Below are positions 17,116 through 36,646 of a stretch of DNA of 37,601 bases, in pieces (positions within the stretch are counted from its first letter, which is position 1; each line of letters opens with the position of its first letter). The DNA lies in contig CALCJK010000002.1 in assembly GCA_937967455.1 (NCBI GenBank), positions 1 to 37,601 on the forward strand. Reading direction: 5' to 3'. The stretch is from an uncultured bacterium. GTDB lineage: Bacteria > Bacteroidota > Ignavibacteria > UBA10030 > BY39. The position numbers were made by a program, and so were the translations under genes. Below the pieces are notes generated by a model. The model had not been told where the DNA came from. It was given only the letters and a program-made list of their open reading frames with translations, and made no database searches.

Positions 17116-17161
17116 GCTTTTTTTCTTTATTTTAATAAAAATCAGTGATAAAGAAAAATTT

Positions 17162-20100: not shown

Positions 20101-20590
20101 AATAAACAATTTTGGAGGAAGCAATTTTTCTGAAGTCAAAAGTTTTACTCTATTAAAACTAATTAAGCCTGATGTTAACATATCGCCAGGTTGGAACTTA
20201 ATTTCGGTGCCGGTTAAATCGATTAATATGTTGAAGAATTATCTCTTTCCAACAAGCATTTCAAATGCATATTGTTTTGATAATGGATATAGAAAAGCTG
20301 ATACTTTGAAAAATGGTATGGGGTATTGGTTAAAGTTTAACACAGCAGAGATTATATCGTTTAATGGTGCAGAAATTTATAGCGATTCAATTAAAGTTAA
20401 TGCTGGTTGGAACTTGATAGGTTCAATTTCTCATGATTTTATTGTTAATTTAATCAGCACAGAACCTGAAAATATTATTGTTTCCGAATTTTATGAATAT
20501 ACAAATGGATACATTAAATCTGATACACTGAAATTAGGTAAAGCTTACTGGGTCAAGGTTAATCAGAGTGGGAAAATAATTTTAAAGTGA
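17162..20590 (+). CDS. large secreted glycoside hydrolase family 57 enzyme with C-terminal modules
   Basis: The ATG at 17162 gives 1142 residues starting directly with a signal peptide (MKKIFILIFSL); a more upstream ATG at 17114 would add 16 residues and bury the signal. The GH57 barrel spans about 28-400, with HMHQP (37-41), the probable nucleophile E186 (FPPEN) and the probable acid in HDGD (326-329). A helical region typical of GH57 follows, then a CBM9/DOMON-like beta domain (about 780-930) and a fibronectin-III-like domain (about 950-1030). The last 125 residues hold two copies of a GWNLI...GYWLK/AYWVK module. It probably acts on alpha-glucans outside the cytoplasm. Confidence 0.9.
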   Translation: MKKIFILIFSLVLTFGFKENEKRSKSNPPIYIAFLWHMHQPIYWPYETILQTEANNRYSYSVVDIHNQRVGPYTIWPKNAVIMGINANFQHFGAQVSFSGSLIENLNNLENGGNQNFQNWKSHWNYIKTQTTSLGNPRLDMVAFGYHHPLMGLIDDIDIRKQIQYHKQIFSQNFLGNYSKGIFPPENAFSTRMIKPLVEEGIKWVLVDNIHFERACDGYPFSTTGNIYEPNKSDVRNPNPGDWIQLNGLWAPTKVSARWARQPHFVEYIDPSTGEKSKIIAVPADRYLGNEDGRGGFTALNYEGVMSQLESYNTDPAHPILIVLAHDGDNYGGGSESYYNNNFQNFVNWLLANPTRFVCTTIEDYLQIFPPDSNDVIHVEPGSWSGADNGDPEFKKWLGDPDASGYSPDRNSWAVVTATKNFVYTANQIDPLNANTQNAWKYLLNSQSSDYWYWDGAQNGVWDSHPTRACNQAVTYAQNVIGSGTDLTPPTIFPPQREPYNPGGTEWGILQSSNFKVWTYVFDISGLKLVKLKYRLDLDGSNSWNSTDNETYGGGSEVTDWIEIPMNSLIIPSQTDPQPYFKAKEFFAEINGLSNVLIDYFVEAIDSNNNLARSPIQHVWVGLNNSGGAYSVSWSPSSPMNQDTIFISVTNVFQAAKLHWGVNNWQTPNSIYWPEGSYLYNGVGPAIESPFQGPDSQNNIRIKIGPFNKPIQTVTKMSFVIHYADNSWDNNNGADYQIHIGSSGGGNFVMDGLIDSTAQLMSENNGLSFYLGWNGADLYLATQSAQSQNADIFIFVSDSQRSLINSPWAKAGKVAGWSAYLGNESSNNWCGWFDNSGTAQKYASASYLEGTLNLLSEFGYVPGRVFVSIGKYQTQDGGSLINQVPAGNGDLNIDSSEFFIYNLNQVPGVPNLIHPSGEILDSNNTITFTWYSVINADEYIIQISEYNNFLIMIIDDTVANNFFTSSELNFNKKYYWRVKAINNFGGSNFSEVKSFTLLKLIKPDVNISPGWNLISVPVKSINMLKNYLFPTSISNAYCFDNGYRKADTLKNGMGYWLKFNTAEIISFNGAEIYSDSIKVNAGWNLIGSISHDFIVNLISTEPENIIVSEFYEYTNGYIKSDTLKLGKAYWVKVNQSGKIILK

Positions 20591-20702: not shown

Positions 20703-23700
20703 TTATAAAAATGATTGGTTGTTTTTATTGGAAGATTGGTTTCGGGATATTAAGGCATATATTACCGGTACTATAAAAAGCACAAGCAGTGTTGTCGAAG
20801 TTAAACCGCCAATTGTTCCAATCCCCAGGGAATACCAAAAGCTGGTATTTGTTTCTTCGAGTACTAATGGCAATATACCAGCTATAGTTGTTAGACTTGT
20901 TATCAATATTGGACGTAGCCTTAAAGAAGCGCCTTCAATGATGGACTCAATAAAATTGCTACCGTGAATTTTTGAAAGTCTGTCAACTAGTAGTATCGAT
21001 ATGTTAACAGATATTCCGGTTAATAAGAGTATTGATGCGTAACCACCTCTATCGAATGTGGTATCGGTGAAATAAAAAGCTAAGAAAACTCCGATCAGTG
21101 ATAACGGAACTGAAATAATTATTATAATAGGTTTTATAAAAGATTCAAACAAAGCAGCCGTTACCATATAAACAATTAGAATTGCAAGAAAGATTATAAA
21201 TCCAAGTTCTACCTCCTTCTCTTGGGTGAGCATAAAAAACATCTGCGATTGTTCTACAGAATAACCAGGTGGCAAACCGTTTCTGATCTGACTGACGACT
21301 GACTCAGTCCATATTTGTCCGTATTTATAAGGACCTTTATACTCGAAAGATACGAAGCGCTGATACTGCTGGTTTTCGCGAACGATTCTTGAGAGAACTT
21401 TCCTATCCTGAATATTTATCACATCTTTTAATTTTATACTTCGCCCTTCTTGTGATTTGATAACAACATTAAGCAAATCTTTTATAGAAAAATTCTCATA
21501 ACCAGAGAATTTAATCGTTAAATTAATTTCTTCACCTGCGATTTTTATACGCGCTGTCTGAACAGTTCCTCGAGTTAATAATCTAATTCGGTGCATCAAA
21601 TCAGCAACGCTTATCCCGTAATGCTCAACTAATTTCCTGTTTGCTACTAATGCAATCTCATACAAATCGCCGCTATACAGGTACGATTTATCGATATCAA
21701 CATTGGCAACACGCCGATTAATGATTAACTTTTGCCGAATTTGTTCAGCAATATCTTTTACTTTTTCATAGTTATATCCAAGAATTTTAATGTTATAATT
21801 TGGTAATGCAGATGAGCCGGTGAAAAAACCTGGACCAAACCCAAAAACACCTACATTAGCTCCACCAATATTACTCATAAGCGATGTAATCTGTGCTTTC
21901 ATTACGTAAGGAAATGAACTTTTTGCAGCATCGTCAGAAAATGTAATCGTAATGCTTCCAATTTCATTGTTGTAAATATTAGTAACATAATTGTCCAGTT
22001 TATCTTTGTACTTGCTTAGTTCAAATTCGATCTTTTTAATTGCTTCGTTAAGTTGTTCAAGCTCAGTGCCAGCCGGCTTACGGACTGTAACTAAAAGATA
22101 TGTTTCAGAACCCCAGCTCCATATTTCACCACGATTTACATATTTGAAAAATAGATGTATACTTCCCCCTAAAATGTGGTCGGTGTAAGGTTTAATAGAA
22201 GAATAAAATTTACTTCCAAAAATTGAATTGTAAACCGGCGAAATCACCGGTGTTTCAATTTTGTCTGGTAACAACCATGTAGGTATCCCAAAAATCCAAA
22301 TTATAAGAATGACAGTTGTTTTTTTGAACTTGATTAATTTGGCAAGTATCAGCTCGTATAATTTTGTAAAATGCCGTTGTAAATTTACTAGTAGTGATTC
22401 AGGATTTTCAGCTCGAAGGAGTTTGTAACAAGTTAATGGAACAAAACTGTAAGCTACGATTAAAGAAAAGAAAAGTGCCAGAGTTACTGTAATCGCAAAT
22501 TGCTCAAATATCAGTCGTAACTCGGGTGATAGAAAATAAACAGGCACTAATGCACCTACTGTTGTTATAGTAGCCGCAAATATTGGTAAAGCTACATCTT
22601 TTACCGCTGAACGCACAGCTGAATTTTTATCCCTATCTAAAAAATTGTATCTCGAAATATTTTCTACAACGACTATCGAATTATCGACTATCAGCCCGAA
22701 TGCAAGGGTAAGCCCCGCTAAAGTTATTATGTTAATACTTAATTTCAATAAGCTCATAACAATGAAAGTCAGCAGCACAGAAAATAGAATGGATGAGATT
22801 ACTACGACGGGTGCTCTTATGGTGTGCAGAGTTGCAACTAAAACAATGAATATAAATATTAAAGAATAAATTGACCGGTTAGTAATTTTATTTATATCCT
22901 TCCGTATGTTCTGGCTTTTGTCGATCTCTTTTATTATGCTGAAGTTGTTAGGGAGTCTTTTTTCCAACTCTGCAATTTTTTTAATAACACGGTCGGCAGT
23001 TTTTATAATATTTGCGTGCGGTTCTTTATCAATTTGCAATGTTACAGCCGATTTTCCATTTATGCGGTAGTAACTATATACATCCTCGAATCCATCATAA
23101 ACATATCCGACTTCTTCCAGAAAAATTACTCTGTTGTCCTTTAGAATTTTTACAGGAATTTTTTTTATTTGTTCAATACTTTTTTCTGGAGTTTCAAATC
23201 CTTTATTATCGATTCTAAGATTTATTTTTTTCCCATTCGATATTAAATTTCCTACTATTTTGAATGAGCCGAATCCTTGAATCTTATCTTGAATCTCAGT
23301 ACTGCTAATCTGGTAAAGGTCTAATTTTTTATAATCGAGCTCAATTTTTATTTCTCTTCTGGTACCACCGTGAATAGTAACATTTGAGATTCCATCAACT
23401 GACATTAACTCGTTAAGCATATTTTGCTCTATAACTTTTCTAATCTCTGAACTTTGTAAGGGAGCAAAAATTGAATAGCTAAGAAATCCTTGAAGTTTTT
23501 CAAAATCTTCTGGAATATATTTTTGTACCCGCGGAGGTGTTGCATCATATGGAAGCGTTTCTGATAAACGTGCCAATTTCTCGTTCAAATCAAGAACTGC
23601 AAAGTTCATTTTAACTTTATTACCAAACTCTACTGTTACACGACTGAGTCCTTCCTGGGTTATGGATGTAACTCTTTTAACTCCTGCGACCGTATTTGCA

Positions 23701-23912
23701 ATTTCCTCTATTGGCGCTGTAATTATTGATTCCATTATCTCTGGTGAGGTGTTACCCCAGGATGTTGATATGGTTACTCGCGGAAAATCAATCTCCGGCG
23801 AAAGTTCAATAGGAAGCTGTACTGCTGTTATTATTCCGATTAACAAGATGGCACTATAAACCATGGTAAAGAGCAAGGGACGGTTGATGAGTATGTTTAA
23901 ATACTTATCCAA
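20703..23912 (-). CDS. RND efflux permease (HAE1/AcrB-like), second of pair
   Basis: The 1069-residue protein has the RND layout: an N-terminal amphipathic helix and membrane helix, a large periplasmic loop, six helices, a second large loop and six more. The TM4 signature GLIVDNSIVVVEN carries the conserved Asp, and the TM10 region reads GISVNISILLVD. The start is TTG at 23912, two bases from the stop of the upstream permease; the next ATG would delete the conserved N-terminal helix. It probably works with the neighbouring permease and a periplasmic adaptor. Substrate is unknown. Confidence 0.93.
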   Translation of the reverse strand: MDKYLNILINRPLLFTMVYSAILLIGIITAVQLPIELSPEIDFPRVTISTSWGNTSPEIMESIITAPIEEIANTVAGVKRVTSITQEGLSRVTVEFGNKVKMNFAVLDLNEKLARLSETLPYDATPPRVQKYIPEDFEKLQGFLSYSIFAPLQSSEIRKVIEQNMLNELMSVDGISNVTIHGGTRREIKIELDYKKLDLYQISSTEIQDKIQGFGSFKIVGNLISNGKKINLRIDNKGFETPEKSIEQIKKIPVKILKDNRVIFLEEVGYVYDGFEDVYSYYRINGKSAVTLQIDKEPHANIIKTADRVIKKIAELEKRLPNNFSIIKEIDKSQNIRKDINKITNRSIYSLIFIFIVLVATLHTIRAPVVVISSILFSVLLTFIVMSLLKLSINIITLAGLTLAFGLIVDNSIVVVENISRYNFLDRDKNSAVRSAVKDVALPIFAATITTVGALVPVYFLSPELRLIFEQFAITVTLALFFSLIVAYSFVPLTCYKLLRAENPESLLVNLQRHFTKLYELILAKLIKFKKTTVILIIWIFGIPTWLLPDKIETPVISPVYNSIFGSKFYSSIKPYTDHILGGSIHLFFKYVNRGEIWSWGSETYLLVTVRKPAGTELEQLNEAIKKIEFELSKYKDKLDNYVTNIYNNEIGSITITFSDDAAKSSFPYVMKAQITSLMSNIGGANVGVFGFGPGFFTGSSALPNYNIKILGYNYEKVKDIAEQIRQKLIINRRVANVDIDKSYLYSGDLYEIALVANRKLVEHYGISVADLMHRIRLLTRGTVQTARIKIAGEEINLTIKFSGYENFSIKDLLNVVIKSQEGRSIKLKDVINIQDRKVLSRIVRENQQYQRFVSFEYKGPYKYGQIWTESVVSQIRNGLPPGYSVEQSQMFFMLTQEKEVELGFIIFLAILIVYMVTAALFESFIKPIIIIISVPLSLIGVFLAFYFTDTTFDRGGYASILLLTGISVNISILLVDRLSKIHGSNFIESIIEGASLRLRPILITSLTTIAGILPLVLEETNTSFWYSLGIGTIGGLTSTTLLVLFIVPVIYALISRNQSSNKNNQSFL

Positions 23913-23913
23913 A

Positions 23914-26900
23914 TTACTTTATCGTGGAGTCTTTATCAAAAAATGTGTAGACTATTGGAACTACAACCAAAGTTAGAAAAGTGGATGATAACAATCCACC
24001 CACTATTGCGATCGATAGTGCTACTTGTAATTGTGATCCAGAGCCAGTGCTTAACATCATTGGTATGAGTGCAAAAACAACGGTTAGTGTATTCATGACA
24101 ATTGGGCGAAAGCGTTGCTTGCCAGCTTCTATGATTGAATCCCTTACAGATAGATTTTCACGCCGCATTCGAAGTATAAAATCAATTTTAACGACGGCGT
24201 CATTATCTGCAATTCCGACGAGTATAATTAAGCCTACTAACGATATCACACTTAAACTTTGTCCTGTGATAAACAATAATACTATTGCACCAACTATTGC
24301 TAAAGGGATCGAAAAAATAATTATAAACGGATAACGAAGTGATTCAAACTCCGCAGCTAAGATCATATACATCAAGATGACCGAAAGTAAGAGCGATATT
24401 ATTAATCCTTTAAGTGCGATTTGCATTTCTTCGCTAATTCCGCCCACTTCAATACTATAACCGGGTGGCAGTTTTATGTGCTTTAATTTCTCTTTGACCA
24501 TATTGATTACTTTGTTTATGCTCGCATCTTTATATCCAGCTAGTAGACTAATTTGACGATGATTATTTTCTCGATTAATTTCTAAAAAGCCTTCCGAGTA
24601 ACTATATTTTATTAAATCGCGAAGGTAGACTGAGCCATTTTTAGTAACTATAGAGCTGTTCATCAAATCATATGTATCATTTCTATCTTTTTCGGTTGCA
24701 CGCACTAAGATTGTAACTTTTTTATCAAAATCGCTCACAGTTGTAGCTTCAAGCCCACTAAAAATGGTACTGATATAATTTGTGATGTCCTTTACTGTTA
24801 AGCCATACATTGCTGCTTTGGTTCTATCTATCTCTATTGAATATTCAGGAATACCTTTTTCATAACCCGATCTTAAATCTGTCAATTCTGGAATTTGATT
24901 TAAGTGTGGAATTAATTCGTTTGCTATCTTTACAGATGTATTTAAATCATTTCCCACCACTTTAATTTGGATATTGTTTTCTGCCGGGTTCAGAATTTTT
25001 TCGAAAGTGGATTTCGGTTTGTGAAAAGCGAAGCTTACATTCTTGAACTTTCCTAACTTATTTCTTATTTCTTCCCTCACTTTCGAAGGAACATATTGCT
25101 TTTTGATTTTTATAAACATTTCGGCTCTGTCTACCGAACCCCGAGTAACGCTAAGAATATCGTGTTCATCCACTATACCGATATTCGTGAGTAAGTATTC
25201 TATTTGGTGCGACGAGATGAGTTCACTTTCGATCGAATTTACAAGCTGTAATGTTCCGGACAATGATGTACCACGGGGTAGTTTAACTTCTAAGATGAAA
25301 TCATGCTGTTCAACATATGGAATAAACTCTTTCGGCATTATTACTATAAGAACAACTGTAACTGCAAATAAGATAAATGTAAATACAAGAACCGTTATTC
25401 TATTGTCGAGAGCATAAAGTAAAAGCTTTTCATATTTATTAAATAATAATCCGATAAATTTAGATATAGTTTTGAAAAGTGGAGATGATAATTTTTCGAT
25501 TAAAGATAAACTTTTTTTACCGATTAGATGGTAGATCTTAGAAGTATTATGCCTTGAAGCCAACATCGGGATTAGCGACATAGCTACGAGTAGAGATGCC
25601 AATAGAGAAATCGTGATACTCAGCGATTGGTCGCGGAATAGTTCTGCGGTAATTCCTTTTATGTAAATTAGCGGAAAGAAAACCGCAACTGTTGTAAGTG
25701 TCGAAGCAGTTATAGCCAATCCAATTTCTGATGCGCCAATAGTGGCTGCCTCGATTAAACTTTTGCCAGCTTGGCGGTGGCGCGAAATGTTTTCGAGCAC
25801 TACGATAGAGTTATCCAAGAGCATACCAACACCAACAGCCAAGCCTCCCATCGAGATAATGTTTAAATTAATGCCGAAAAGGTACATAAGCAAAAATGTT
25901 GCAAACAACGAGGTTGGTATAGTAATACCTATGATGAGAGGATCTTTGATATTATATAAGAATAAGAACAAAATCAGGAAAGCTAATATGCCACCGTATA
26001 GAACTTCCTGTTCCACATTTGTTATTGCATCATTAATAAAGTCAGCTTGGCTAAAAACAGCTGAAACATTGAAGTCTTTGTACTCTTCGTTTAGTTGTTC
26101 GATTACCTTTTTTATTTTATGAGTTGTTTTTACTGTGTTTGAGCCGATTTCTTTTTTTACTAAAATCGAAATTGTTTCGTTACCGTTCAAACTTGAAATA
26201 CCCTGCCGCTCCTTAAAATCGTCTATTACTTCCGCAATATCTTTAATTCTGACAATTTTTTTCTTTCCCTGGGTTGAACTAAGTTTATCTTTGTTGTCTA
26301 TTATTATGGTATTTTTAATTTCGTCAATAGTTTGTAGTTCACCTAATATCCTGAGTGGAAATCGGAACCAGCCACTTTTAATATCCCCGCCGGGTAAATT
26401 TACATTTGCTGCTGATATTGATGTTACAACATCGTTGAGTGAAAGGTTAAATGTATTCAGCAGTTGCATATTTACATTAACTTGTATTTCGCGCTCTAAG
26501 CCACCCAAAATGGACGCCTGTGCTACTCCGTCGATTTGTTCGAGCCGGCGCTTTACGACTAAACGCGAGTACTCTTTTAGATTTACGAGATACTCTTTTT
26601 GTTGCGGAGTTATTTCGTGAATATTTAATTTTGTACTTGCTAAGTCAAACATTTGCCTTTTACCTGTAACCACGAGTGTCATTATAGGGAAGGTGGATGG
26701 ATCTATGCGTATAATAGTTGGTCTGCCTGATTCTTTTGGTAGCAGATAGCGCAGTTGGTCTAACTTTTCACGCACATGCAAGACAGCGAAGTCCATTTCA
26801 GTGCCCCAAATAAATTCGACCTCCACCAAAGATAATCCCTCACGAGATGTAGAGGACACTTTTTTTACTCCAGTGATTGTTCCTACTGTAGATTCGATTG

Positions 26901-27096
26901 GTTCAGTAATTGAAGCCTCAACCTCTTCAGGCGATGCATTCGGATAAATCGTTTGTATTGTAATTTTTGGTATATCGATTTGGGGAAGCAGGTCGATGCT
27001 GAGCTGATGATACGAGTAAATACCGAAGAGTGCAATGGCTAAAAAAAACATTAAAGTTGTAACAGGACGTTTTATTGAAGTGCGCTGTATCCACAT
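23914..27096 (-). CDS. RND efflux permease (HAE1/AcrB-like), first of pair
   Basis: The 1060-residue RND permease opens with MWIQRTSIKRPVTTLMFFL and has the conserved porter-domain segment SPEEVEASITEPIE and the TM4 signature GVGMLLDNSIVVLEN. The TM10 region GIADNDAVVKID is more acidic than the usual GIVVNNAIVLVD. It is translated just before a second, different RND permease, an arrangement that recalls heteromeric MdtBC-type pumps or tandem paralogues. No adaptor or outer-membrane factor is directly upstream; a same-strand adaptor lies beyond the accessory island at 35370-36590. Confidence 0.93.
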   Translation of the reverse strand: MWIQRTSIKRPVTTLMFFLAIALFGIYSYHQLSIDLLPQIDIPKITIQTIYPNASPEEVEASITEPIESTVGTITGVKKVSSTSREGLSLVEVEFIWGTEMDFAVLHVREKLDQLRYLLPKESGRPTIIRIDPSTFPIMTLVVTGKRQMFDLASTKLNIHEITPQQKEYLVNLKEYSRLVVKRRLEQIDGVAQASILGGLEREIQVNVNMQLLNTFNLSLNDVVTSISAANVNLPGGDIKSGWFRFPLRILGELQTIDEIKNTIIIDNKDKLSSTQGKKKIVRIKDIAEVIDDFKERQGISSLNGNETISILVKKEIGSNTVKTTHKIKKVIEQLNEEYKDFNVSAVFSQADFINDAITNVEQEVLYGGILAFLILFLFLYNIKDPLIIGITIPTSLFATFLLMYLFGINLNIISMGGLAVGVGMLLDNSIVVLENISRHRQAGKSLIEAATIGASEIGLAITASTLTTVAVFFPLIYIKGITAELFRDQSLSITISLLASLLVAMSLIPMLASRHNTSKIYHLIGKKSLSLIEKLSSPLFKTISKFIGLLFNKYEKLLLYALDNRITVLVFTFILFAVTVVLIVIMPKEFIPYVEQHDFILEVKLPRGTSLSGTLQLVNSIESELISSHQIEYLLTNIGIVDEHDILSVTRGSVDRAEMFIKIKKQYVPSKVREEIRNKLGKFKNVSFAFHKPKSTFEKILNPAENNIQIKVVGNDLNTSVKIANELIPHLNQIPELTDLRSGYEKGIPEYSIEIDRTKAAMYGLTVKDITNYISTIFSGLEATTVSDFDKKVTILVRATEKDRNDTYDLMNSSIVTKNGSVYLRDLIKYSYSEGFLEINRENNHRQISLLAGYKDASINKVINMVKEKLKHIKLPPGYSIEVGGISEEMQIALKGLIISLLLSVILMYMILAAEFESLRYPFIIIFSIPLAIVGAIVLLFITGQSLSVISLVGLIILVGIADNDAVVKIDFILRMRRENLSVRDSIIEAGKQRFRPIVMNTLTVVFALIPMMLSTGSGSQLQVALSIAIVGGLLSSTFLTLVVVPIVYTFFDKDSTIK

Positions 27097-27466
27097 AAGA
27101 TGTAGCTATTTTGATCTTCGTAATTTTAGAATAAATATAACTAACACAAAACTAATTATCAATTGTTCTGTGTTTATTAAAATCTTATTTAAGTTTATAT
27201 TTTTCTAATATCCTGTTACCAGGTTTGTCACTAAGCTCAATGTATATAATACAATTTTCATATACATCCTTTATTCCTCCACCTTTATCAAGAACAACAA
27301 TAGGTTTTACTCGATATGTATCATAAACTCGCTCATTAACATATTAAGATATTATCACTAAATATTTCTATACTCATTTTTCGTATTGTTTAGATAAGCT
27401 ATTTTAGTTCTTGCTTTTACAACGCGTAACCTCAATAAGTGGTCACCTTATCTTTGGAAAATTTTA
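27097..27466. other. non-coding gap at left edge of accessory island
   Basis: This stretch is strongly AT-rich and holds no intact gene. It contains one open remnant on the minus strand (listed separately). No convincing promoter for the RND genes is visible, though one must lie here or upstream. The minus-strand frame of the CxxC protein could continue past its stop if the run of seven T just before it had one fewer base. Confidence 0.6.
27185..27343 (-). pseudogene. C-terminal remnant of an unidentified protein
   Basis: A 52-residue minus-strand reading without a start codon begins YVNERVYDTYRVKP and ends LEKYKLK before a TAA. It contains an ordered beta-like segment (IVVLDKGGGIKDVYEN) that looks like coding sequence rather than chance. 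It may be the tail of another island gene cut by deletion. I do not recognise the family. Confidence 0.35.
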
Positions 27467-27856
27467 TTAAAAAAAGATGTTTTTAGCTTTACTTAAGGGA
27501 AATTCTTCGCAATCAATTACTTCTTCATTAGAATTTAGAATTACGATTGAATTATTTTTTATTATATAATTATCAAATACAGTGTCAGAAACTACTTCAA
27601 CAGGAAAAGATATTGAATTTGCTTTTGCCCATCCCTTGATTACTTTTTGAGCAATTTTTTTATTACTGTAATTGTTTAAAATGAATGCTACAATATTGTG
27701 GATATAATTTTCATTGTAGTACTTGTTAACTGAATCGATAAAAGCCATTATATTTTCCATACACGGGGTACAACTAAAATCTTTGAAGTTGATAAATAAT
27801 ATTACTTGTGAGCCCGATTGGTTAAGGCTCGAATTTTTGTGTTGCACTCCATTCAT
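27467..27856 (-). CDS. thioredoxin-like CxxC protein, probably 5'-damaged
   Basis: The 129-residue reading has a thioredoxin-like start: a hydrophobic strand (VILFINF), then FSCTPCMEN with C29 and C32. The first ATG (27856) leaves no export signal, but the same frame upstream reads a hydrophobic segment (FILLLCLLNYNFV) without an ATG, suggesting that the original membrane anchor or lipoprotein signal has lost its start. It follows the broken ABC permease. It is the counterpart of the CxxC proteins in the two other cassette copies. Whether it is still expressed is doubtful. Confidence 0.5.
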   Translation of the reverse strand: MNGVQHKNSSLNQSGSQVILFINFKDFSCTPCMENIMAFIDSVNKYYNENYIHNIVAFILNNYSNKKIAQKVIKGWAKANSISFPVEVVSDTVFDNYIIKNNSIVILNSNEEVIDCEEFPLSKAKNIFF

Positions 27857-27870
27857 TACAAAATTATAGT

Positions 27871-28635
27871 TCAGCAGACAGAGTAATAAAATAAAGCAGA
27901 ATAGATGAAGGAGTTAGCATTAATATTTTCGTTGAATAAGAGTTTGGTTATGTTTAATTTTAATTCGGCTACTTGGGGAACAATGTAGTATAATAAGTCA
28001 ATAAATTTATGAATTAGTTCGTTATCGAATAAGGGATATAAAATTTTCTTCCTAGCATGTAATAATATTGGTAATATTATAGTGTATACCCAAGTTAATA
28101 TTAATGACAGAAGTGAATTATTGCTGAACATTGAGATCAGAAAATAATAACACAAAATTATAAGTGCTATAAATAAAGAAGTGAGTATAGCTAATAAAAT
28201 ACCGTTAAAAATAAATTGAAATCTTAGTCCCCATATTATCGCTATTGATGATAATAAATATATAAGACCTATGGAAAATCCAATTAAAGAAGTTACAAAC
28301 ATCGAGGGAAAAATGCCGATACGGGAAAGTGGTTTTGAATGAAGTAATTCTATTCTACCTTTTTGAGTAGTATTTGGGGTAATCCATACAATAGTTTAAA
28401 CTCCCATAAATAATTGTATTAAAATACCAAAAGATAAAATATCGATCCAGTCTTGTTGTGAACTTTCCAATCCTGTTATAATAATTTGTTTTATAATGCC
28501 ATTACTATGAATTATGTTAGTGGCAATAGACAAGTACCATATAAAAATAGAAGCAATCAATATCGAAATATAAATTAACCTATGTACAAACAGTTCATAA
28601 AGTAATAGTCTTATCAAAGCTAATGTAGTTGCCAT
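27871..28635 (-). pseudogene. ABC-2 type transporter permease, interrupted by in-frame TAA
   Basis: Two pieces (28396-28635 and 27871-28302) lie in the same frame and are joined by 31 open codons, with the only interruption a TAA at 28396-28398. Read through, they give a permease of about 254 residues with roughly six membrane helices. The segment after the stop, KGRIELLHSKPLSRIGIF, matches the conserved ABC-2 segment normally read as RGTIDLLLSKPISR. The start follows the end of the ATPase pseudogene within a few bases, a normal operon arrangement. A single nonsense change makes the gene inactive unless read through. Confidence 0.75.
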
Positions 28636-28636
28636 A

Positions 28637-29429
28637 TTATTGTTTATTAATCAATTCTATGAAAATTTCTTCTAGTGTATTTTGATATTTTTCAATTGTA
28701 TAAATATTAATATTTACTTTTCGAAGTTCGTCTATAAATAAATTCAATTTATTAATATCGTCGATAGATACATTAATGTAATTCTCGTTTATTTCCCAGT
28801 TGTAAGTTTTTAAAATATTTTTGATATTCTCTGGTAATGGTGTACTTACTTTAATTCTGTATTTTAAAGGTCTCTATCATTTCCCTTCTGTTTATAGGGT
28901 CGAGTCCTTCAGTTGGTTAATCTAACAGGATTAGCGCAGGATCATTAATTAATGAATGAGCAATTCCAAGCTGTTGTTTCATACCTTTTGAATAATTTCT
29001 GATCTTTTTATTTTCATAGTCTTTTATATTAAATTTTTCAAGAATAAAATTAATCCTTTTTTCCAAAGCGGACCTATCTTGTAAGCACATACTAACATAA
29101 TAAGTAAGGAACTGTTTCCCTGTTAAAAAATCAGGATAAATTAAATTTTCAGGTAAGTAACCAATCTTTTTCTTAATTGATGGATTATTTATATCTTGAC
29201 CAAAGAGTTTTACACTTCCACCATTTGGTAAAACAATACCAAGTAAAGTTTTAATAAAAGTGCTTTTACCAGCTCCATTCGGGCCAGAGAGGCCAAATAT
29301 CTCACCTTTCTCTACTTCTATTGATATATCGTCCAAGGCAGTTATATATTCTTTTCTATTATGCTTATATACTTTTATTTTTATCTGATGCAATAGTACG
29401 TGTTGGTTCAGTAAAAATATATATACCAT
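28637..29429 (-). pseudogene. ABC transporter ATP-binding protein, nonsense plus internal deletion
   Basis: The N-terminal 170 residues show Walker A GPNGAGKST, a Q-loop region (GYLPENL) and the signature YSKGMKQQLGIA. Walker B reads LILLD and then TAA, followed in frame by PTEGLDP, so the catalytic glutamate codon GAA has become a stop. A few codons later (RREMIE) the H-loop region is missing, and a shifted frame resumes with the C-terminal domain ending FIELINKQ just before the permease start. The translation start is uncertain (ATG 29429 or TTG 29393), as it overlaps the tail of a propeller remnant. Confidence 0.8.
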
Positions 29430-29820
29430 CTAAGTTAAAAATGTAAAGATCTTTTTTATCCATTCCTGTAACATTTCCACCTAATATTAAAAGGTTTTTT
29501 CCACTTATCTCTAATTTTCTGATAATTGCATCAGGCGATTCATTTTTATTTTTGGTTTTGAATTGTTTATATATTTGAGGTATCGAAAAACTTTTAATAA
29601 AATTTCCATTTTTGTCATATTTTTCAATTACATTTAAAAATATATATCCTACATATAAATTATCTAAATGATCAATAGCAATATTGATAGAATTTAAATA
29701 TTTGTATATCTGGTCTTTTAATATCTATGGCTATTAAGGTATCCTTATAAATTGCAATTGTTGCGGGTGATTGAAATTCTCCAGGTCCAAATCCCCCTTC
29801 TTCCAACTTTATTAATTAAT
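29365..29820 (-). pseudogene. 6-bladed beta-propeller protein remnant
   Basis: Two minus-strand frames match the intact propeller protein nearby. The first reads GFGPGEFQSPATIAIYKD, like GAGPGEFISPSSFEVFKD of the intact copy. The second reads INIAIDHLDNLYVGY and then runs open to a stop at 29365. The N-terminal third, including any lipoprotein signal, is missing, and the remnant begins directly after a cassette leader palindrome and degraded ribosome site. A frameshift and an internal deletion separate the two pieces. Confidence 0.7.
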
Positions 29821-29831
29821 TTCCCTTTTTA

Positions 29832-29845
29832 CCGTCAATTGACGG
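29832..29845 (-). promoter_or_regulatory. leader palindrome, degenerate cassette copy
   Basis: The perfect palindrome CCGTCAATTGACGG is followed on the minus strand by TAAAAAGGGAA, the same layout as the two leaders at 32276-32289 and 34783-34796. The preceding bases AATTAACTGAACAA match AATTAACAGAACAA before the 32276 copy. The 79-bp promoter repeat is not present here. Confidence 0.6.
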
Positions 29846-29961
29846 GTTGTAAATTGTTCAGTTAATTTGATGTTATATATAAATTTCTCTGAATTAAGCT
29901 ATGAATAACTATAACCATCTGAATCTAAAAGTTTTGAATTATAAATTTATTAAGTTTATAA

Positions 29962-30366
29962 TTATTCCTCGTCTGTAAATATATTTGCAGTGTTAGAGAT
30001 TTTATGTATGAACTTTATTTCACCTGGGAACATACTACCCGATCTTTTTTGATTTATATCAGTTGTGGTTATATCATATCCTAGTATTTTTCCCTCATAA
30101 AATGAAAAATCATTGTTATAAAATATTTTGAAAGCATATGGAGTTGCATCTTGATCAGATTTATAATAAAAAATTACCTTCTCTATGGGTTTTGATTTAT
30201 AATTTGGATAAGTTTTAACTTGGCATTCGTTCCCTTTATAATCCAGGTAGATAATTAGAATCGAGCACTTTTTGAAAATTACTTTATCCACTTTGAGGTT
30301 TGAGGATGAATGACAAGTAATATATATCGTTAATACAAAACCAATCAATAAATATATTGTTTTCAT
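29962..30366 (-). CDS. small putative lipoprotein of unknown function
   Basis: The 134-residue product begins with a hydrophobic segment (MKTIYLLIGFVLT) ending in a lipobox-like ITC (C18). The mature part is beta-rich with several Tyr and Lys residues (KVIFYYKSDQDATPY) and no motif I recognise. Its start lies five bases after the stop of the CxxC protein gene, so it is the last gene of the four-gene intact cassette. The sequence after it leads into the degenerate third leader. Confidence 0.7.
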   Translation of the reverse strand: MKTIYLLIGFVLTIYITCHSSSNLKVDKVIFKKCSILIIYLDYKGNECQVKTYPNYKSKPIEKVIFYYKSDQDATPYAFKIFYNNDFSFYEGKILGYDITTTDINQKRSGSMFPGEIKFIHKISNTANIFTDEE

Positions 30367-30371
30367 AATAT

Positions 30372-30980
30372 TTAATTCCTTTCGAGTAATATTTTTATTT
30401 GTTTTCCAAGATTATCTATTCTATTGTTAAAACGATGATCAGCACAAAATGCTAAAATAGGAGAAAGATGATTATTAGTTACAATAATGAAAGGTGTTTG
30501 AATATCATTTAGGTTAGAATAAATATTTGAATATGTTTCGATTATTGTAGGTATTGAGGAATAATACTTTTTATCAATAGTTGTTTGAACGCCACTGTCT
30601 TTAATTATTTTAACGCCAATAATCTTTTTAGTTTTTGTTGTATAAAATGAATTAACCTCATCTAAAAAAGCTATAAGTGGCGACAAGCATAAGATGCAGT
30701 CATTTTCGCTAAAGAATAAAAATATATTTACATCGGCTAGGTATTCTACTTCAGCAGAACTTGTATCCGTTATTTTCTTAATAAAAGAATAATTTAAATT
30801 CCTTAATATTAATTCATCATCAATTAGCTTTTTCTCAGATTTTAAGATATTATTTTCGCTTTCAATTAATTCAAACTGATTTAATAGAGTCTTATATTTG
30901 TTTAATGCATAAATATTTAATACAATCATAATAATTACAAATATCGAAATCACTATTTTTGAGAGAATCGTCATCTCCAA
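30372..30980 (-). CDS. membrane-anchored thioredoxin-like CxxC protein
   Basis: The 202-residue protein has an N-terminal membrane anchor (about 7-26), a predicted coiled coil (about 28-58) and a thioredoxin-like domain with the strand NIFLFF followed by ENDCILC (C95, C98), with a further cysteine near residue 178. It should face the periplasm and could reduce, oxidise or isomerise disulfides. It starts seven bases after the propeller gene; either TTG 30980 or ATG 30974 is used. The cysteine-rich peptide three genes of context upstream is an obvious candidate substrate, but that is inference. Confidence 0.72.
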   Translation of the reverse strand: MEMTILSKIVISIFVIIMIVLNIYALNKYKTLLNQFELIESENNILKSEKKLIDDELILRNLNYSFIKKITDTSSAEVEYLADVNIFLFFSENDCILCLSPLIAFLDEVNSFYTTKTKKIIGVKIIKDSGVQTTIDKKYYSSIPTIIETYSNIYSNLNDIQTPFIIVTNNHLSPILAFCADHRFNNRIDNLGKQIKILLERN

Positions 30981-30987
30981 ATGTATT

Positions 30988-31989
30988 TTAATTTTCCATA
31001 TGAAATTTTACAACACGACCTTCGGTTTTGTCTGACAAATAGATTATTCCCGTTTTATCTACTGCGAGATTACCATAGTTATGCAATGAATCGATGTGAA
31101 TATCGCCTTTAGATATTCTAAATATTTTTTTTAATTCTCCATCTTGGCTGAAAGCATATACAGTATTACCGTAAGGCACTACACCTTGAAATAGAATATA
31201 CAAAAAAGGTGATTGATAATAAATATCTTTGCTTAAATAAAATAAATTGTACTTCTGCTCTGGGTTATTTTCTCTCTTCTTTACAATGAAATCGTGCATC
31301 TGTTTAATCTCATTATATTTACTCAAATCTTTTTCCCATAATAAATTTTTATTTTTATCATATTTTCGTAGAATTGGAAGCATAACAAAGGATGCATATA
31401 TATTATCGTGTTCATCAATAGCAACAAATACATTGTTCATTGATATTTTTAGATATGGATCTGGATTTTCAATAATATTTCCAAAGCTTTCAATTACTTC
31501 TCCATATTCATCATATACTGTTATTAAATTGTTTCCCAAAGGATGATTAATAAATAATTTTCCTAACGAATTGATACAAAATGACGATTTTGCAAATAAT
31601 TGATATTTTGGTCGGAAGCTGCGAAGATATTCGCCATCTAATGTTATTACGTCAATTCTAAACTTTGAAGCATCGTAAACATAGAGAATATCTTTAAATA
31701 CTTCAAATGATGAAGGTGAAATAAATTCCCCAGGGCCAGCTCCTTTACGTCCTATTTGATTTAGGTAGTTAAAATCCTTATCGAAAATGACAATTCTTTG
31801 GTTGCTCCCATCAAGGACAAATATTTTGTTCTCTTTTATTATTAGTTTTTCCGGCTTACTGAAAAAAGGGATGGAATCTGCTGGGAAATTACTAACATCT
31901 TTAGTTTCTACAAGATAATGTATATCTGTTTGTTCAGAACAGGCACTAATTAGAAATATGATTATAATTAGAAAATTTATTTTATTCAT
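30988..31989 (-). CDS. 6-bladed beta-propeller lipoprotein
   Basis: The 333-residue protein has a lipoprotein signal (LISAC, lipid Cys 17) and repeated propeller blades with NHL/TolB-like signatures: KIFVLDGSNQRIVIFDKD, GRKGAGPGEF, ILYVYDASKFRIDV and a final AVDKTGIIYLSDKTEGRVV. It resembles the DUF5128/6-bladed propeller proteins of Bacteroidota that are often encoded beside small exported peptides. The gene starts 19 bases after the cysteine-rich peptide gene and precedes the CxxC gene by seven bases. It probably binds a peptide or polysaccharide in the periplasm or at the outer membrane. Confidence 0.85.
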   Translation of the reverse strand: MNKINFLIIIIFLISACSEQTDIHYLVETKDVSNFPADSIPFFSKPEKLIIKENKIFVLDGSNQRIVIFDKDFNYLNQIGRKGAGPGEFISPSSFEVFKDILYVYDASKFRIDVITLDGEYLRSFRPKYQLFAKSSFCINSLGKLFINHPLGNNLITVYDEYGEVIESFGNIIENPDPYLKISMNNVFVAIDEHDNIYASFVMLPILRKYDKNKNLLWEKDLSKYNEIKQMHDFIVKKRENNPEQKYNLFYLSKDIYYQSPFLYILFQGVVPYGNTVYAFSQDGELKKIFRISKGDIHIDSLHNYGNLAVDKTGIIYLSDKTEGRVVKFHMEN

Positions 31990-32008
31990 TACTTTATAAC
32001 TGGGTTAA

Positions 32009-32263
32009 TTATATATTATTAGGCACACATCCACAGCTGGAATCACCTTCCCACCATGGACAGTCGCATTTGCATCCCTCGAATGGATGACCTTCGCAGT
32101 TACATGGTCCTCTGTTGCAGGCGCAAAAACAGAATCCAGTACCACACCCAACCCGAATTGAGCACTTGTATGTTGTTGTTGGACTTAATGAAAATGTCTG
32201 AGAATTATGTATAATTAATATTAGTAATACTAGCACTACTATACTTAATAATAAATCTTTCAT
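32009..32263 (-). CDS. exported cysteine-rich 84-residue peptide
   Basis: The peptide has a hydrophobic export signal or anchor (about 4-19) followed by a segment with 12 cysteines in 46 residues: positions 34, 40, 45, 47, 49, 54, 56, 64, 66, 68, 77 and 79. The spacing is mostly CxC pairs with Gly, Pro and Asn between, a dense disulfide or metal-binding layout. A strong ribosome site (AAGGAGAG) precedes the ATG by a few bases, and the gene is first in a four-gene operon with its own promoter and palindromic leader. I recognise no family; it broadly recalls the small peptides encoded next to propeller proteins in Bacteroidota (NVEALA type). Confidence 0.8.
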   Translation of the reverse strand: MKDLLLSIVVLVLLILIIHNSQTFSLSPTTTYKCSIRVGCGTGFCFCACNRGPCNCEGHPFEGCKCDCPWWEGDSSCGCVPNNI

Positions 32264-32275
32264 ATCTCTCCTTTC

Positions 32276-32289
32276 CCATCAATCGACAG
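32276..32289 (-). promoter_or_regulatory. leader palindrome before cysteine-rich peptide gene
   Basis: On the minus strand CTGTCGATTGATGG lies just upstream of the ribosome site GAAAGGAGAG. It is an imperfect version of the perfect palindromes at 29832 and 34783. It could be an operator or an RNA hairpin that controls access to the ribosome site. Confidence 0.55.
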
Positions 32290-32304
32290 ATTTTTATTTG
32301 TTCT

Positions 32305-32383
32305 GTTAATTGCACCTACAATTTACAAGTTACCATAATAAAAGTCAAGAAAAAAATTATACCAATTTGTTATATCATTTTGT
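32305..32383. repeat. 79-bp perfect direct repeat, copy 1
   Basis: All 79 bases are identical to 34819-34897 in the same orientation. The flanks differ immediately on the promoter-distal side and are related but diverged on the leader side. It carries the promoter of the cysteine-rich peptide operon. Confidence 0.95.
32320..32348 (-). promoter_or_regulatory. promoter of the cysteine-rich peptide operon
   Basis: TTGACT (32343-32348) and TAAATT (32320-32325) are separated by 17 bases on the minus strand, inside the 79-bp repeat. The expected start of transcription near 32312 gives a leader of about 50 bases containing the palindrome. Confidence 0.55.
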
Positions 32384-32553: not shown

Positions 32554-33135
32554 TTATTGATAGTTAATATTCTGAATCTGATTATCAATTCGTGTAATTA
32601 ACTCATGATGTCTTTCTGGATTAGGCTGAGCTGATTGAATAAAAATTACATCGCCATTATTTGCTACTAATAATTTTGAGGGAGTAGCGTCTATATTAAA
32701 TTTATTTTTAATCAACTCTGTTACTTTCTTATCCTTATCTACCAGAATCGTAAAACTTAGATTGGAATTTATAATCCACGATTTTAATTCTATCTCATCA
32801 CCATGAAATACAATCCCTACAACACTTACCTTTTTACTCTTATGTATTTCTTCCCATATATTTTTTTCCATCAAGCATGAAGGGCAATCGGTTAATGTAA
32901 ATAAAATAAAGAGTGTATAATTGTTTTCTGAAACAATACTCGACGATGTATATACATTTCCTTCGACATCTTTCAAAGCAAAGTATAGTAATTTACCCCC
33001 TTTTTTAATTTCTACATCATCGCTAATACGATCACCATTTTTCAACTTATAGTTTTGATATAACAAGGTTGCATTTAGAATTACTAGTAAAATAATAATA
33101 GTAGCTAAAATGATTTTTTTAAAATAATTTTTCAT
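32554..33135 (-). CDS. membrane-anchored TlpA-like thioredoxin (CPSC)
   Basis: The 193-residue protein has an N-terminal membrane helix (about 7-26) and a thioredoxin fold with LTDCPSC (C84, C87) and a later cis-proline type segment (DATPSKLLV), as in TlpA/ResA proteins. It should act on periplasmic thiols. Its ATG overlaps the stop of the propeller remnant (ATGA, 33132-33135), a coupling expected from a once intact peptide-propeller-CxxC operon. This gene itself looks intact, but its translation would be affected by the frameshifts upstream. Confidence 0.82.
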   Translation of the reverse strand: MKNYFKKIILATIIILLVILNATLLYQNYKLKNGDRISDDVEIKKGGKLLYFALKDVEGNVYTSSSIVSENNYTLFILFTLTDCPSCLMEKNIWEEIHKSKKVSVVGIVFHGDEIELKSWIINSNLSFTILVDKDKKVTELIKNKFNIDATPSKLLVANNGDVIFIQSAQPNPERHHELITRIDNQIQNINYQ

Positions 33136-33800
33136 CTCAATGATAACTTATATTTTCCAATTTTATAAATAGGCGGTGAGGGATCGCGTTCCTCATATTC
33201 AGTTAGAAAGTATAAGTAATATTCTTTATCCTTACAAAGTAATTTGTAATTAGTTGCAATATTTCCAGCTACATAGTAGCCATTACACTTGTATATTTCT
33301 AACATATACTCCCCCCATCGGCCCTTAATTTTTCAGGAATTCTACAGGATATAAGAACATACTCATTATTCATCAATATTAATTTCTCAACCGGAGTAAA
33401 TGAATTAAAGAATTCTTCGTTTTCTTTTTGTGATTTATTCATAAAAGATTTTAAATCGCGAATGGGTGGGGGGCGTTTAAAATAACTCGGTTGATTCCCG
33501 AATGAGCGTTTTAACATACCGTTCGTATCTAAAACATTTATATAAAATTCACAGCTTTGAATCGCATATATATTGCCATTATCATCCATATCAAAAAGCA
33601 TTGTGAAAAATAGCCTAAATTATTCTCTCTTGCCCATTTTGATACTGGGTAAAATGAATTTAAATATTTACCTTTTTCTGAATATGCAATAATGTAATCA
33701 CCAACCCCGGGGATGTTCTTTTCCCAATTTTCTTTATATGCATTCATATAAATTTTATTATTAAAATTTCCATGCAAAGCTTCGAGGTTTTTTATTAAAT
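33132..33800 (-). pseudogene. beta-propeller protein remnant with two frameshifts
   Basis: Three overlapping frames form one propeller-like reading. The first part (IIAYSEKGKYLNSFYPVSKW) shifts near 33600 at a T5 run into FDMDDNGNIYAIQS and VLDTNGMLKRSFG. It shifts again at a C6 run at 33311-33316 into YKCNGYYVAG, ending KIGKYKLSLR. One added T in the first run would restore the frame as GYFFTMLFDMD. The N-terminal part and lipoprotein signal are absent. Each shift sits in a homopolymer, so sequencing error and true decay are both possible. Confidence 0.65.
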
Positions 33801-33974: not shown

Positions 33975-34595
33975 TCACCACCATCCAATTTTTTTGAAAA
34001 AGCTGGCTCCAGCCGCTCCCGCCACCATTCCACCTAATAACCCACCCCAACTAAATTGACAATTGGAATCAAGTAAGCATTGTCCAGCATAAATGCCCCC
34101 TGCCACAACACCTCCAGCAATATCAGCTTTAGCTAGAATTGGAACTGTTACTTTATTAATTTTACTCAACCCTCTACCACTCCACCACTCATAGCTCGAA
34201 CGGTATATAGATTCTATAGCATATATCATTGTTCTTGTTGTATCATCAATCGATTCAGTCAAGTTATTGCAATAATCAGCTAATTTTTCACGTGCATCAC
34301 TATAACTGTCGATAATCCTCCCTATTTCTATCAAATTTATTTTTGTTTTTTCACTTATCAAGTTTTTATTGAATAAATGGGAAACAATTTCTTCCAAACT
34401 CATTTCACGCTTACTATTCTCTATTGAATCCGGAAAACCAGGAAAACTAATTTTCATAAGCTCATCTGTTTTATCGAGTATGCGACTGTTCTCGAATTCA
34501 TTATACTCCATGCCTTTAATACGCATAAACTGTTTTGTTAATTCAAAAGAGTTCTCTAATGAAAATTCTACCTCTTTGCTATTGAATTTATCCAT
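33975..34595 (-). CDS. 206-residue protein with glycine-zipper C-terminus
   Basis: The ATG at 34595 overlaps the stop codon of the 57-residue peptide gene (TAATG). Residues 1-140 are soluble, charged and mostly helical (MDKFNSKEVEF onward). The last 55 residues are hydrophobic and glycine-rich, with AGGVVAGGIYAG, a Cys pair (CLLDSNC) and GGLLGGMVAGAAGASFF before a terminal KKIGWW. Glycine-zipper tails of this kind occur in membrane-inserting bacteriocins and some phage tape or holin proteins. No signal peptide is present. The function is unknown; a toxin-like role is suggested by this tail and its small neighbours. Confidence 0.65.
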   Translation of the reverse strand: MDKFNSKEVEFSLENSFELTKQFMRIKGMEYNEFENSRILDKTDELMKISFPGFPDSIENSKREMSLEEIVSHLFNKNLISEKTKINLIEIGRIIDSYSDAREKLADYCNNLTESIDDTTRTMIYAIESIYRSSYEWWSGRGLSKINKVTVPILAKADIAGGVVAGGIYAGQCLLDSNCQFSWGGLLGGMVAGAAGASFFKKIGWW

Positions 34596-34768
34596 TATCC
34601 ACAATTATGTCCTTCACCCACCCAAGTATACGGATTATTAAAAGTTGTTTTATTTGTTTGCTTCAAAAAATCATCTGGTTGGTTTCCGTAATTACATTTG
34701 TGGAATGTGAATGATATCAACAGGGATACAATTACTATCCCAAGCGAAATAATTACTAACTTTTTCAT
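34595..34768 (-). CDS. 57-residue exported peptide at head of right cassette
   Basis: This short gene runs from ATG 34768 to TAA 34595-34597, with a strong ribosome site (AAAGGAGAG) ten bases upstream and the palindromic leader before it. The peptide has a hydrophobic signal or anchor (about 4-22) and a short polar tail with two cysteines (C25 and C56), ending WVGEGHNCG. Promoter, leader and position correspond to those of the cysteine-rich peptide gene at 32009-32263, although the mature sequences differ. Its stop overlaps the next gene's start. Confidence 0.7.
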   Translation of the reverse strand: MKKLVIISLGIVIVSLLISFTFHKCNYGNQPDDFLKQTNKTTFNNPYTWVGEGHNCG

Positions 34769-34959: not shown

Positions 34960-35343
34960 TCATTTTTGCCAAATTGTTTTCTTGAGCTTGAGGGTGGTGC
35001 TGGGTTGGGGGGGGAAATTTTTCTTCAATTCATTTAATGTTATACCAAAATTTTTTCTTACCCATCGATAAAGTTGAAACTCATTCTTAAATCCAATTTT
35101 TATTCCTATTGTATATGCCTTCTCATGTTTATTTTCTTTAAGAATTTCTTTTAACATTTCAATTCTAAGCATGTTAATATATTCACGTATTGAAAAACCT
35201 GTTCGTTCCCTGAAAATTACATATAAATATTGGCGGCTTATTTTGTAAATTTGAGAAAATGTATTAATACGAAAACCGTTATTAAAATTTTCTTTGATAT
35301 AATCAATTAATTTTTCAACCAATAACTCTCGTTTAATATTCAT
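34960..35343 (-). CDS. AraC-type DNA-binding protein without sensor domain
   Basis: The 127-residue protein is essentially one AraC double helix-turn-helix domain (about 8-110): INTFSQIYKISRQYLYVIFRE as the first helix pair and a conserved IGIKIGFKNEFQLYRWVRK second half. There is no ligand-binding domain. A strong ribosome site (AAGGAGG) precedes the ATG. A run of eight C (35007-35014) encodes the NFPPQP region near the C-terminus, so slippage there would only change the tail. It lies 26 bases after the adaptor gene and about 60 bases before the promoter repeat of the island, so it could regulate either. Confidence 0.85.
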   Translation of the reverse strand: MNIKRELLVEKLIDYIKENFNNGFRINTFSQIYKISRQYLYVIFRERTGFSIREYINMLRIEMLKEILKENKHEKAYTIGIKIGFKNEFQLYRWVRKNFGITLNELKKNFPPQPSTTLKLKKTIWQK

Positions 35344-35369: not shown

Positions 35370-36590
35370 TTAATTAATTTTTATTTTTGCATCGTGAGCC
35401 AACGAATAGTGACCATTTATTAAAACCGTATCTCCAGGAGTTATACCGTTTTTTATTTCAACAAATTTCTCATTCTCAGCTCCAGTTTCAACATAACACC
35501 ATTTAGCTAAACCATCTGATGCAATAAAAACCAACTTACGTTGATCTCGAATTAATATTGCTTCTTTAGGAACTATCAAGCGGTTTTCAAATATTGCAGT
35601 TTCGATTCTAACCTCCGCATACATTCCCGGTTTAATTATTCCCTCATTATTTTCTAACTCGATGATTACTTTACAGGTTTTTGTTTGTGCATCTATAACT
35701 GGTGATATATTTTTAATTTTACCATTAAATACCTTTCCAGGGTACGATGGTATTGTAACTTCTGCACTGTTTCCTTTTTTTATTAACTTTATTTCAGATT
35801 CAAGTACACCAACCTCAACTTTAATTCTTGAAATATCAACAATTTGCAGTAGCTTTTCACCAGCTTTGACATTCTGTCCAATGTTAATGTTTACATCGGC
35901 TGCATATCCACTTATAGGCGATCGTATTTCAGTATGTGCTAAATTTAATTTTATCCTCTCTAAGTTTACTATTGCTTGGTTAAGTCCGCACTTTTGGGCA
36001 ATGACATCGTCTCGAACATCTGGGCTATAAACTAAAGCTGCTTCATAATTGCGCTTTGCCTTATTGTACTGCTTTTCATCAATTTGTTTCGACTTATAAG
36101 CTTTCTCGGCTTCTTTATAATTACAAATTGCTTCGGATAATAAACTATTTCCAGAATAAATTTCAATTCTTTCCATAGTTGTTCCGTAGCGCATAAGGTT
36201 ATACTCGATTTGAGTTTCTAATAATTTCGACTCTGCTTCTTTTAATGCTAATAATATTTCTGAATCATCAAGCTTTAATAATAGTTCACCCTTATCAACC
36301 TTGCTCCCTTCATCAACAAAGTATTGCTGTACTATTCCGTTTATACTCGAAGAAATTTCTACCTGATATATAGGTTTTGCATTTCCTGATGTTAGAATGC
36401 TTTGTACTAGGTTACCTACTCTTGCTACAACAGCTGAGACATCAAAAACAATATCTGAATTAATCGTTGGGATTTCTTTGTTTTTATTGCTCTCCTCTTT
36501 TTTTTCTGATTTTGTGAAGATGTAGACCGAAAGTATAAAAATTATTAAAGGTAGTAATAAACCAATAATTATTTTATTCTTTAAACCCAT
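35370..36590 (-). CDS. RND periplasmic adaptor (membrane fusion protein, HlyD/AcrA-like)
   Basis: From ATG 36590 the product is 406 residues (MGLKNKIIIGLLL...); a TTG at 36623 could extend it by 11. It has an N-terminal membrane anchor (about 5-22), a lipoyl-like half motif (GIVQQYFVDEGSKVDKGELLLKLDD region), a helical hairpin (about 110-200), the returning lipoyl half (LAHTEIRSPISGYAADVN) and beta-barrel and membrane-proximal domains. It should link RND permeases to an outer-membrane channel. It lies upstream, on the same strand, of two RND permeases 8.3 kb away, and is probably their adaptor. No TolC-type gene is in the window. Confidence 0.9.
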   Translation of the reverse strand: MGLKNKIIIGLLLPLIIFILSVYIFTKSEKKEESNKNKEIPTINSDIVFDVSAVVARVGNLVQSILTSGNAKPIYQVEISSSINGIVQQYFVDEGSKVDKGELLLKLDDSEILLALKEAESKLLETQIEYNLMRYGTTMERIEIYSGNSLLSEAICNYKEAEKAYKSKQIDEKQYNKAKRNYEAALVYSPDVRDDVIAQKCGLNQAIVNLERIKLNLAHTEIRSPISGYAADVNINIGQNVKAGEKLLQIVDISRIKVEVGVLESEIKLIKKGNSAEVTIPSYPGKVFNGKIKNISPVIDAQTKTCKVIIELENNEGIIKPGMYAEVRIETAIFENRLIVPKEAILIRDQRKLVFIASDGLAKWCYVETGAENEKFVEIKNGITPGDTVLINGHYSLAHDAKIKIN

Positions 36591-36622
36591 ATATATCAAT
36601 ATTTTACATTTTATGTCTGGCA

Positions 36623-36646
36623 AAGATTTTTTTTAGAAAAAATCTT
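36623..36646. repeat. AT-rich perfect inverted repeat upstream of adaptor gene
   Basis: AAGATTTTTT (36623-36632) and AAAAAATCTT (36637-36646) are perfect inverted repeats with a 4-base spacer, about 33 bases before the adaptor start. It could be an operator or a weak hairpin. Confidence 0.45.

What the first reader, a model, noticed from the sequence alone, without database searches (positions are those of the whole stretch)
29962..32348. Intact operon: 12-cysteine exported peptide, propeller lipoprotein, CxxC membrane protein and small lipoprotein
Seen: four closely spaced leftward genes behind one promoter, beginning with an 84-residue peptide whose 12 cysteines are packed into its last 51 residues, followed by a 6-bladed propeller lipoprotein, a membrane-anchored thioredoxin-like CxxC protein and a small lipoprotein. 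Known: in Bacteroidota, propeller lipoproteins are often encoded beside short exported peptides. Inferred: the CxxC protein handles disulfides of the peptide and the propeller binds it. The cysteine-rich peptide is not a family I recognise, and the grouping may be an undescribed secreted-peptide system.
Basis: partly seen in the sequence, partly recalled or inferred. Interest (0 to 1): 0.82.

Follow-up and report, generated by a model that had tools for sequence, protein, structure and literature searches.

The report
Cysteine-rich peptide, propeller and pump locus
The window holds an intact copy of a recurring gene set in which a small, cysteine-packed exported peptide is encoded with a propeller lipoprotein, thioredoxin-like proteins and a dedicated RND efflux pump; the peptides are in no family library searched, and their function has not been shown.

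Summary
The operon is real. An 84-aa peptide with 12 Cys in its last 51 residues is followed, 19, 7 and 5 bp apart, by a DUF5128-type propeller lipoprotein, a membrane-anchored CILC protein and a 134-aa putative lipoprotein. The peptide sequence itself is an orphan, but its arrangement is not. Of 41 propeller loci (window included), 20 hold 31 comparable peptides (hydrophobic leader, at least 4 Cys). All lie on the propeller's strand, 30 of 31 within 400 bp. Twenty control regions (340 kb) held one antisense artefact. These RND proteins form two clades apart from 14 other RNDs of the same class. Some paralogous peptides keep one leader but have unrelated cores. Bacteroides-type NVEALA/propeller loci look like an analogue without detectable sequence homology. 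Best reading: a secreted, oxidatively folded, diversifying peptide with a propeller partner and a dedicated RND pump. Export by the pump, and whether the peptide is a weapon or a signal, are inferred. The fourth gene was not found elsewhere. Neighbouring modules in the window are decayed.

The parts
32009..32263 (-). 84-aa exported Cys-rich peptide (12 Cys)
   Evidence: no family match
30988..31989 (-). six-bladed propeller lipoprotein (DUF5128/TolB-like)
   Evidence: homologues in 47 of 294 class genomes
30372..30980 (-). membrane-anchored thioredoxin-like protein, CILC motif
   Evidence: matches a CQSC protein in L079; low-confidence model resembles thioredoxins
29962..30366 (-). 134-aa putative lipoprotein; not part of the recurring set
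32554..33135 (-). TlpA/ResA-like thiol-disulfide protein (CPSC) of the neighbouring module, 62% identical to its L079 counterpart
33135..33762 (-). decayed propeller of the neighbouring module, in three frames, N-terminus missing
   Evidence: tblastn with the intact L079 propeller
34960..35343 (-). AraC-type HTH protein, found at 6 of 20 peptide loci
35370..36623 (-). HlyD/RND periplasmic adaptor
   Evidence: TIGR01730 208 bits vs 94.9 cut-off; present at 12 of 20 peptide loci
23914..27096 (-). RND permease A (module clade)
20703..23912 (-). RND permease B (module clade)
29596..29848 (-). remnant of a further propeller
27188..27283 (-). C-terminal remnant of a propeller, 69% identical to L079 propeller residues 346-377

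Best explanation
An accessory, diversifying secreted-peptide module. The peptide enters the periplasm by its N-terminal hydrophobic leader. Its many cysteines are oxidised there with the help of the membrane-anchored thioredoxin-like proteins (and MauE-type partners where present). The folded peptide is bound by the propeller lipoprotein, and the dedicated two-permease RND pump with its HlyD adaptor moves the mature peptide out of the cell, or clears it from the envelope. The variable cores on constant leaders suggest a role at the cell surface under diversifying pressure, most likely antagonism of or signalling to neighbours, with the propeller as chaperone, presenter or self-protection. Shown here: gene content, strand, spacing, recurrence, the RND clades, leader/core divergence. 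Inferred: disulfide formation, binding, export, biological role.
For: Recurrence: 31 leader plus at-least-4-Cys peptides in 20 of 41 propeller loci, from 34 raw hits with 3 antisense artefacts removed by eye; 1 antisense artefact in 340 kb of control DNA from the same genomes. With L136 added, 32 of 32 are on the propeller's strand and 31 of 32 within 400 bp. Partners over the 20 loci: propeller 20 (by selection), TlpA/MauE 15, RND 15, adaptor 12, AraC HTH 6. Peptide present at 15 of 17 RND+ loci and 5 of 24 RND- loci, Fisher p 2.5e-5. Tests not anchored on propellers: the related RND of G006 (43%) stands beside two propellers and a peptide, whereas 13 regions around more distant RNDs have no module; of 9 further RND-A loci, 3 have peptides and propellers. 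Module RNDs fall in two clades apart from 14 others. Paralogous peptides of L041 share 39-42 of 41-45 leader residues but only 7-13 of 28-38 core residues.
Against: Nothing shows that the peptide is made, oxidised, bound or exported. RND pumps are not established exporters of small ribosomal peptides (own knowledge). Three of 9 independent RND-A loci (L154, L155, L157) have no module. L045 and L159 paralogues conserve the core about as much as the leader, or more, so core diversification is not universal. The window peptide lacks a clear signal peptidase site. Loci were chosen through propellers and some come from one genome, so counts are not independent. The peptide rule uses thresholds that I set.
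Confidence: 0.5

Rival explanations
1. Metal-binding (metallothionein-like) periplasmic peptide that works with the RND pump in metal detoxification; the CxC motifs bind metal rather than form disulfides.
For: Window peptide has CFCAC, CNC, CKCDC and CGC; RND permease A scores 489 bits against CusA/CzcA TIGR00914.
Against: That score is below the family's 701-bit cut-off and below the multidrug model (634 bits). Many sister peptides have only 4 Cys, and the partners are thiol-disulfide proteins.
Confidence: 0.15
2. The peptide is a small redox-active or quinone-bearing subunit of a propeller enzyme, built like methylamine dehydrogenase (propeller large subunit, 12-Cys small subunit, MauE, MauD).
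For: Propeller plus Cys-rich small protein plus MauE and TlpA-like genes; the parallel itself is from my own knowledge of the mau cluster.
Against: No Pfam match of the peptide; Cys number behind the leader runs from 4 to 12 and cores vary, unlike a catalytic subunit.
Confidence: 0.08
3. The peptide is not a pump substrate but an envelope-stress or pump-regulating peptide; pump, propeller and peptide together sense and remove toxic compounds.
For: AraC-type regulator, adaptor and permeases at the locus.
Against: Leader-constant, core-variable paralogues and several peptides per locus fit a secreted effector better than a fixed regulator.
Confidence: 0.2

Closest known systems
NVEALA peptides (PF14055) with propeller lipoproteins in Bacteroides-type genomes
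   Same: Short exported peptides with Cys-containing variable cores and constant leaders, beside propeller lipoproteins; RND genes near them in two of three genomes viewed
   Different: No detectable sequence homology of leaders (hhalign probability 2.4%); no match over the NVEALA cut-off in 149 genomes of the window's class
DUF5128 (PF17170) / TolB_like (PF15869) propellers
   Same: The window propeller is over the DUF5128 cut-off
   Different: It is just under the TolB_like cut-off (27.5 vs 29.2 bits); the families say nothing of a peptide or pump
MauD/MauE biogenesis of methylamine dehydrogenase
   Same: MauE and TlpA-like genes beside a Cys-rich small protein
   Different: No match of the peptide to any Pfam family; cores vary
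Multidrug RND pumps with two permeases (such as MdtBC)
   Same: Two RND permeases and an HlyD adaptor
   Different: Separate clades tied to peptide loci; scores far below the equivalog cut-offs

Membership tests
NVEALA (PF14055) | match to the Pfam profile above 27 bits | tested here: not met
   no hit for the window peptide or 9 sister peptides; none over cut-off in 149 class genomes
DUF5128 propeller (PF17170) | match to the Pfam profile above 22.9 bits | tested here: met
   48.5 bits
TolB_like propeller (PF15869) | match above 29.2 bits | tested here: not met
   27.5 bits
thioredoxin/TlpA superfamily (202-aa CILC protein) | thioredoxin fold with CxxC active site | tested here: inconclusive
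   CILC present; homologue in L079 matches AhpC-TSA; own model pLDDT 46.9, Foldseek best hits thioredoxins at E 0.01
AhpC-TSA/Redoxin (193-aa CPSC protein) | match above Pfam cut-off | tested here: met
   35.5 vs 26.6 (Redoxin) and 32.9 vs 26 (AhpC-TSA) bits
heavy-metal RND (CusA/CzcA) | TIGR00914 above 701 bits | tested here: not met
   489 and 260 bits
methylamine dehydrogenase light chain | match to its Pfam family | tested here: not met
   no Pfam hit
disulfide-bonded secreted peptide | cysteines oxidised in the mature peptide | not testable with these tools
   needs mass spectrometry

The most novel reading that the evidence does not exclude
A widespread system in Bacteroidota in which hypervariable, disulfide-rich ribosomal peptides are folded by dedicated thiol-disulfide proteins, held by a cognate propeller lipoprotein and exported by their own two-permease RND pump: a peptide secretion route not described so far.
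Probability: 0.27. Interest if true: 0.88.

Novelty: new variant of a known kind. Interest (0 to 1): 0.64.

Why it matters
It ties unnamed Cys-rich peptides, a large family of propeller lipoproteins of unknown function and a separate RND clade into one testable unit. If the pump exports the peptides, it would be a new route for secreting folded ribosomal peptides and a source of new disulfide-rich scaffolds. It would also suggest what Bacteroides NVEALA/propeller pairs are for.

Tried and rejected
Homologues of the window peptide: none in its own family of genomes beyond itself (one chance hit), none convincing in plasmids, none in PDB, Pfam, NCBIfam or PHROGs. A scan of genome contigs with the CxxC protein gave no relative; one with RND permease A gave L162, a 71041-base contig titled Bacteroidota bacterium that appears to be G004's, and distant gammaproteobacterial RNDs. 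NVEALA homology of the long leaders: rejected. Structure of the peptide alone: pLDDT 60.5, not interpretable beyond the N-terminal helix. Literature: nothing on NVEALA, DUF5128 or DUF4934 in this sense, within open-licence papers only; PMC10434189 only lists a B. thetaiotaomicron propeller gene in a table. Promoter claim: not distinguishable from chance.

Full report
Observation. The 84-aa ORF has a hydrophobic N-terminus, then 12 Cys from residue 34 on. Shuffled sequence does not give such ORFs. Gaps of 19, 7 and 5 bp make one transcript likely, but the promoter match is not better than chance. The propeller is a DUF5128 member. The 202-aa CILC protein has no Pfam match of its own; it matches a CQSC protein of L079 that is AhpC-TSA-like. 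The 134-aa protein has a poor lipobox and no relative in the loci compared.

Surroundings. Upstream lies a second module: a TlpA-like CPSC protein (32554-33135) and a propeller broken into three frames (33135-33762), both matched by intact neighbours in L079, a locus of another genome of the same GTDB family (G004). Downstream are two more propeller remnants (27188-27283, 29596-29848). The whole is framed by two RND permeases (20703-27096), an HlyD adaptor (35370-36623) and an AraC-type HTH protein (34960-35343). L079 has the same frame with two Cys peptides (4 Cys each), four propellers of which one is the broken one's counterpart, a MauE-TlpA fusion and CxxC proteins. The propeller and CxxC searches found no match in the genome of the same genus, G001, and its nearest RND is only 34% identical with no module beside it, so the set looks accessory.

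Recurrence. Propeller hits in 47 of 294 class genomes led to 40 regions. A fixed rule (45-140 aa, leader hydropathy, at least 4 Cys behind it, little overlap with larger ORFs) found 34 ORFs in 20 of 41 loci including the window; 3 look antisense or spurious and were dropped by eye. Twenty control regions of the same genomes gave 1, also judged spurious. All peptides share the strand of the nearest propeller. Clustering the proteins of the 20 loci gave propeller 20, TlpA/MauE 15, RND 15, adaptor 12, AraC HTH 6.

The pump. RND+ loci have peptides in 15 of 17 cases, RND- loci in 5 of 24. In a quick tree of 41 RND proteins, the module permeases fall in two clades (A 12 rows, B 13 rows), with 14 RNDs from other loci elsewhere; the members of A and B not labelled 'module' come from a truncated contig (L135) or from propeller loci without a detected peptide (L044, L066). 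Anchored on RND-A instead, G006 has two propellers and a peptide, while 13 regions around more distant RNDs show no module (one weak propeller fragment in L147, one unconvincing ORF in L140). Of 9 more RND-A loci, L153, L159 and L161 have peptides and propellers, L158 has a propeller and a shortened peptide, L160 a propeller on a short contig, L156 is a 4.8-kb contig, and L154, L155 and L157 have no module. So the link is strong, not absolute.

The peptides. Nine of the sister peptides have no Pfam or NCBIfam match above cut-off. In L041 three paralogues share a leader almost letter for letter and have unrelated cores; Bacteroides-type NVEALA paralogues (L117, L148) do the same; L045 and L159 do not. 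Several leaders end in an AxA-like site before the Cys-rich core; the window peptide has no clear one (sequence).

Relation to known families. NVEALA peptides sit beside propellers in G474 and G512, with RND genes nearby, but neither the Pfam model nor profile comparison shows homology. I file this as analogous, not as a member. In the RND tree the two NVEALA-locus permeases join clade A with support 96 on long branches, which I do not rely on.

Mechanism and limits. The gene set fits export by a leader, oxidation by Trx-like proteins, binding by the propeller and removal or secretion by the RND pump. Only gene content and arrangement are shown.

Noticed in passing
window 33135-33762: Propeller gene broken into three frames and lacking its N-terminus; an intact counterpart exists in L079 (11494-12552).
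   Followed up: yes
window 27467-29429: Short ORFs: an ABC ATPase that stops at its Walker B region, two membrane ORFs (the one scanned has no family match), and a Trx-like piece; looks like a decayed ABC/Trx module.
   Followed up: partly
window 33975-34604: 209-aa ORF (TTG start) with a glycine-rich, GxxxG-like C-terminus and no convincing family match.
   Followed up: partly
L041 6800-7057, 8407-8715, 10535-10864: Three paralogous peptides with nearly identical leaders and unrelated Cys-rich cores.
   Followed up: yes
L117, L118, L148: NVEALA peptides beside propellers with an RND permease nearby in two Bacteroides-type genomes.
   Followed up: partly
L154, L155, L157: RND-A loci without any propeller or Cys-rich peptide found.
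   Followed up: no
window 17114-20590: 1158-aa protein with a GH57 domain and an Ig-like domain, outside the module.
   Followed up: no
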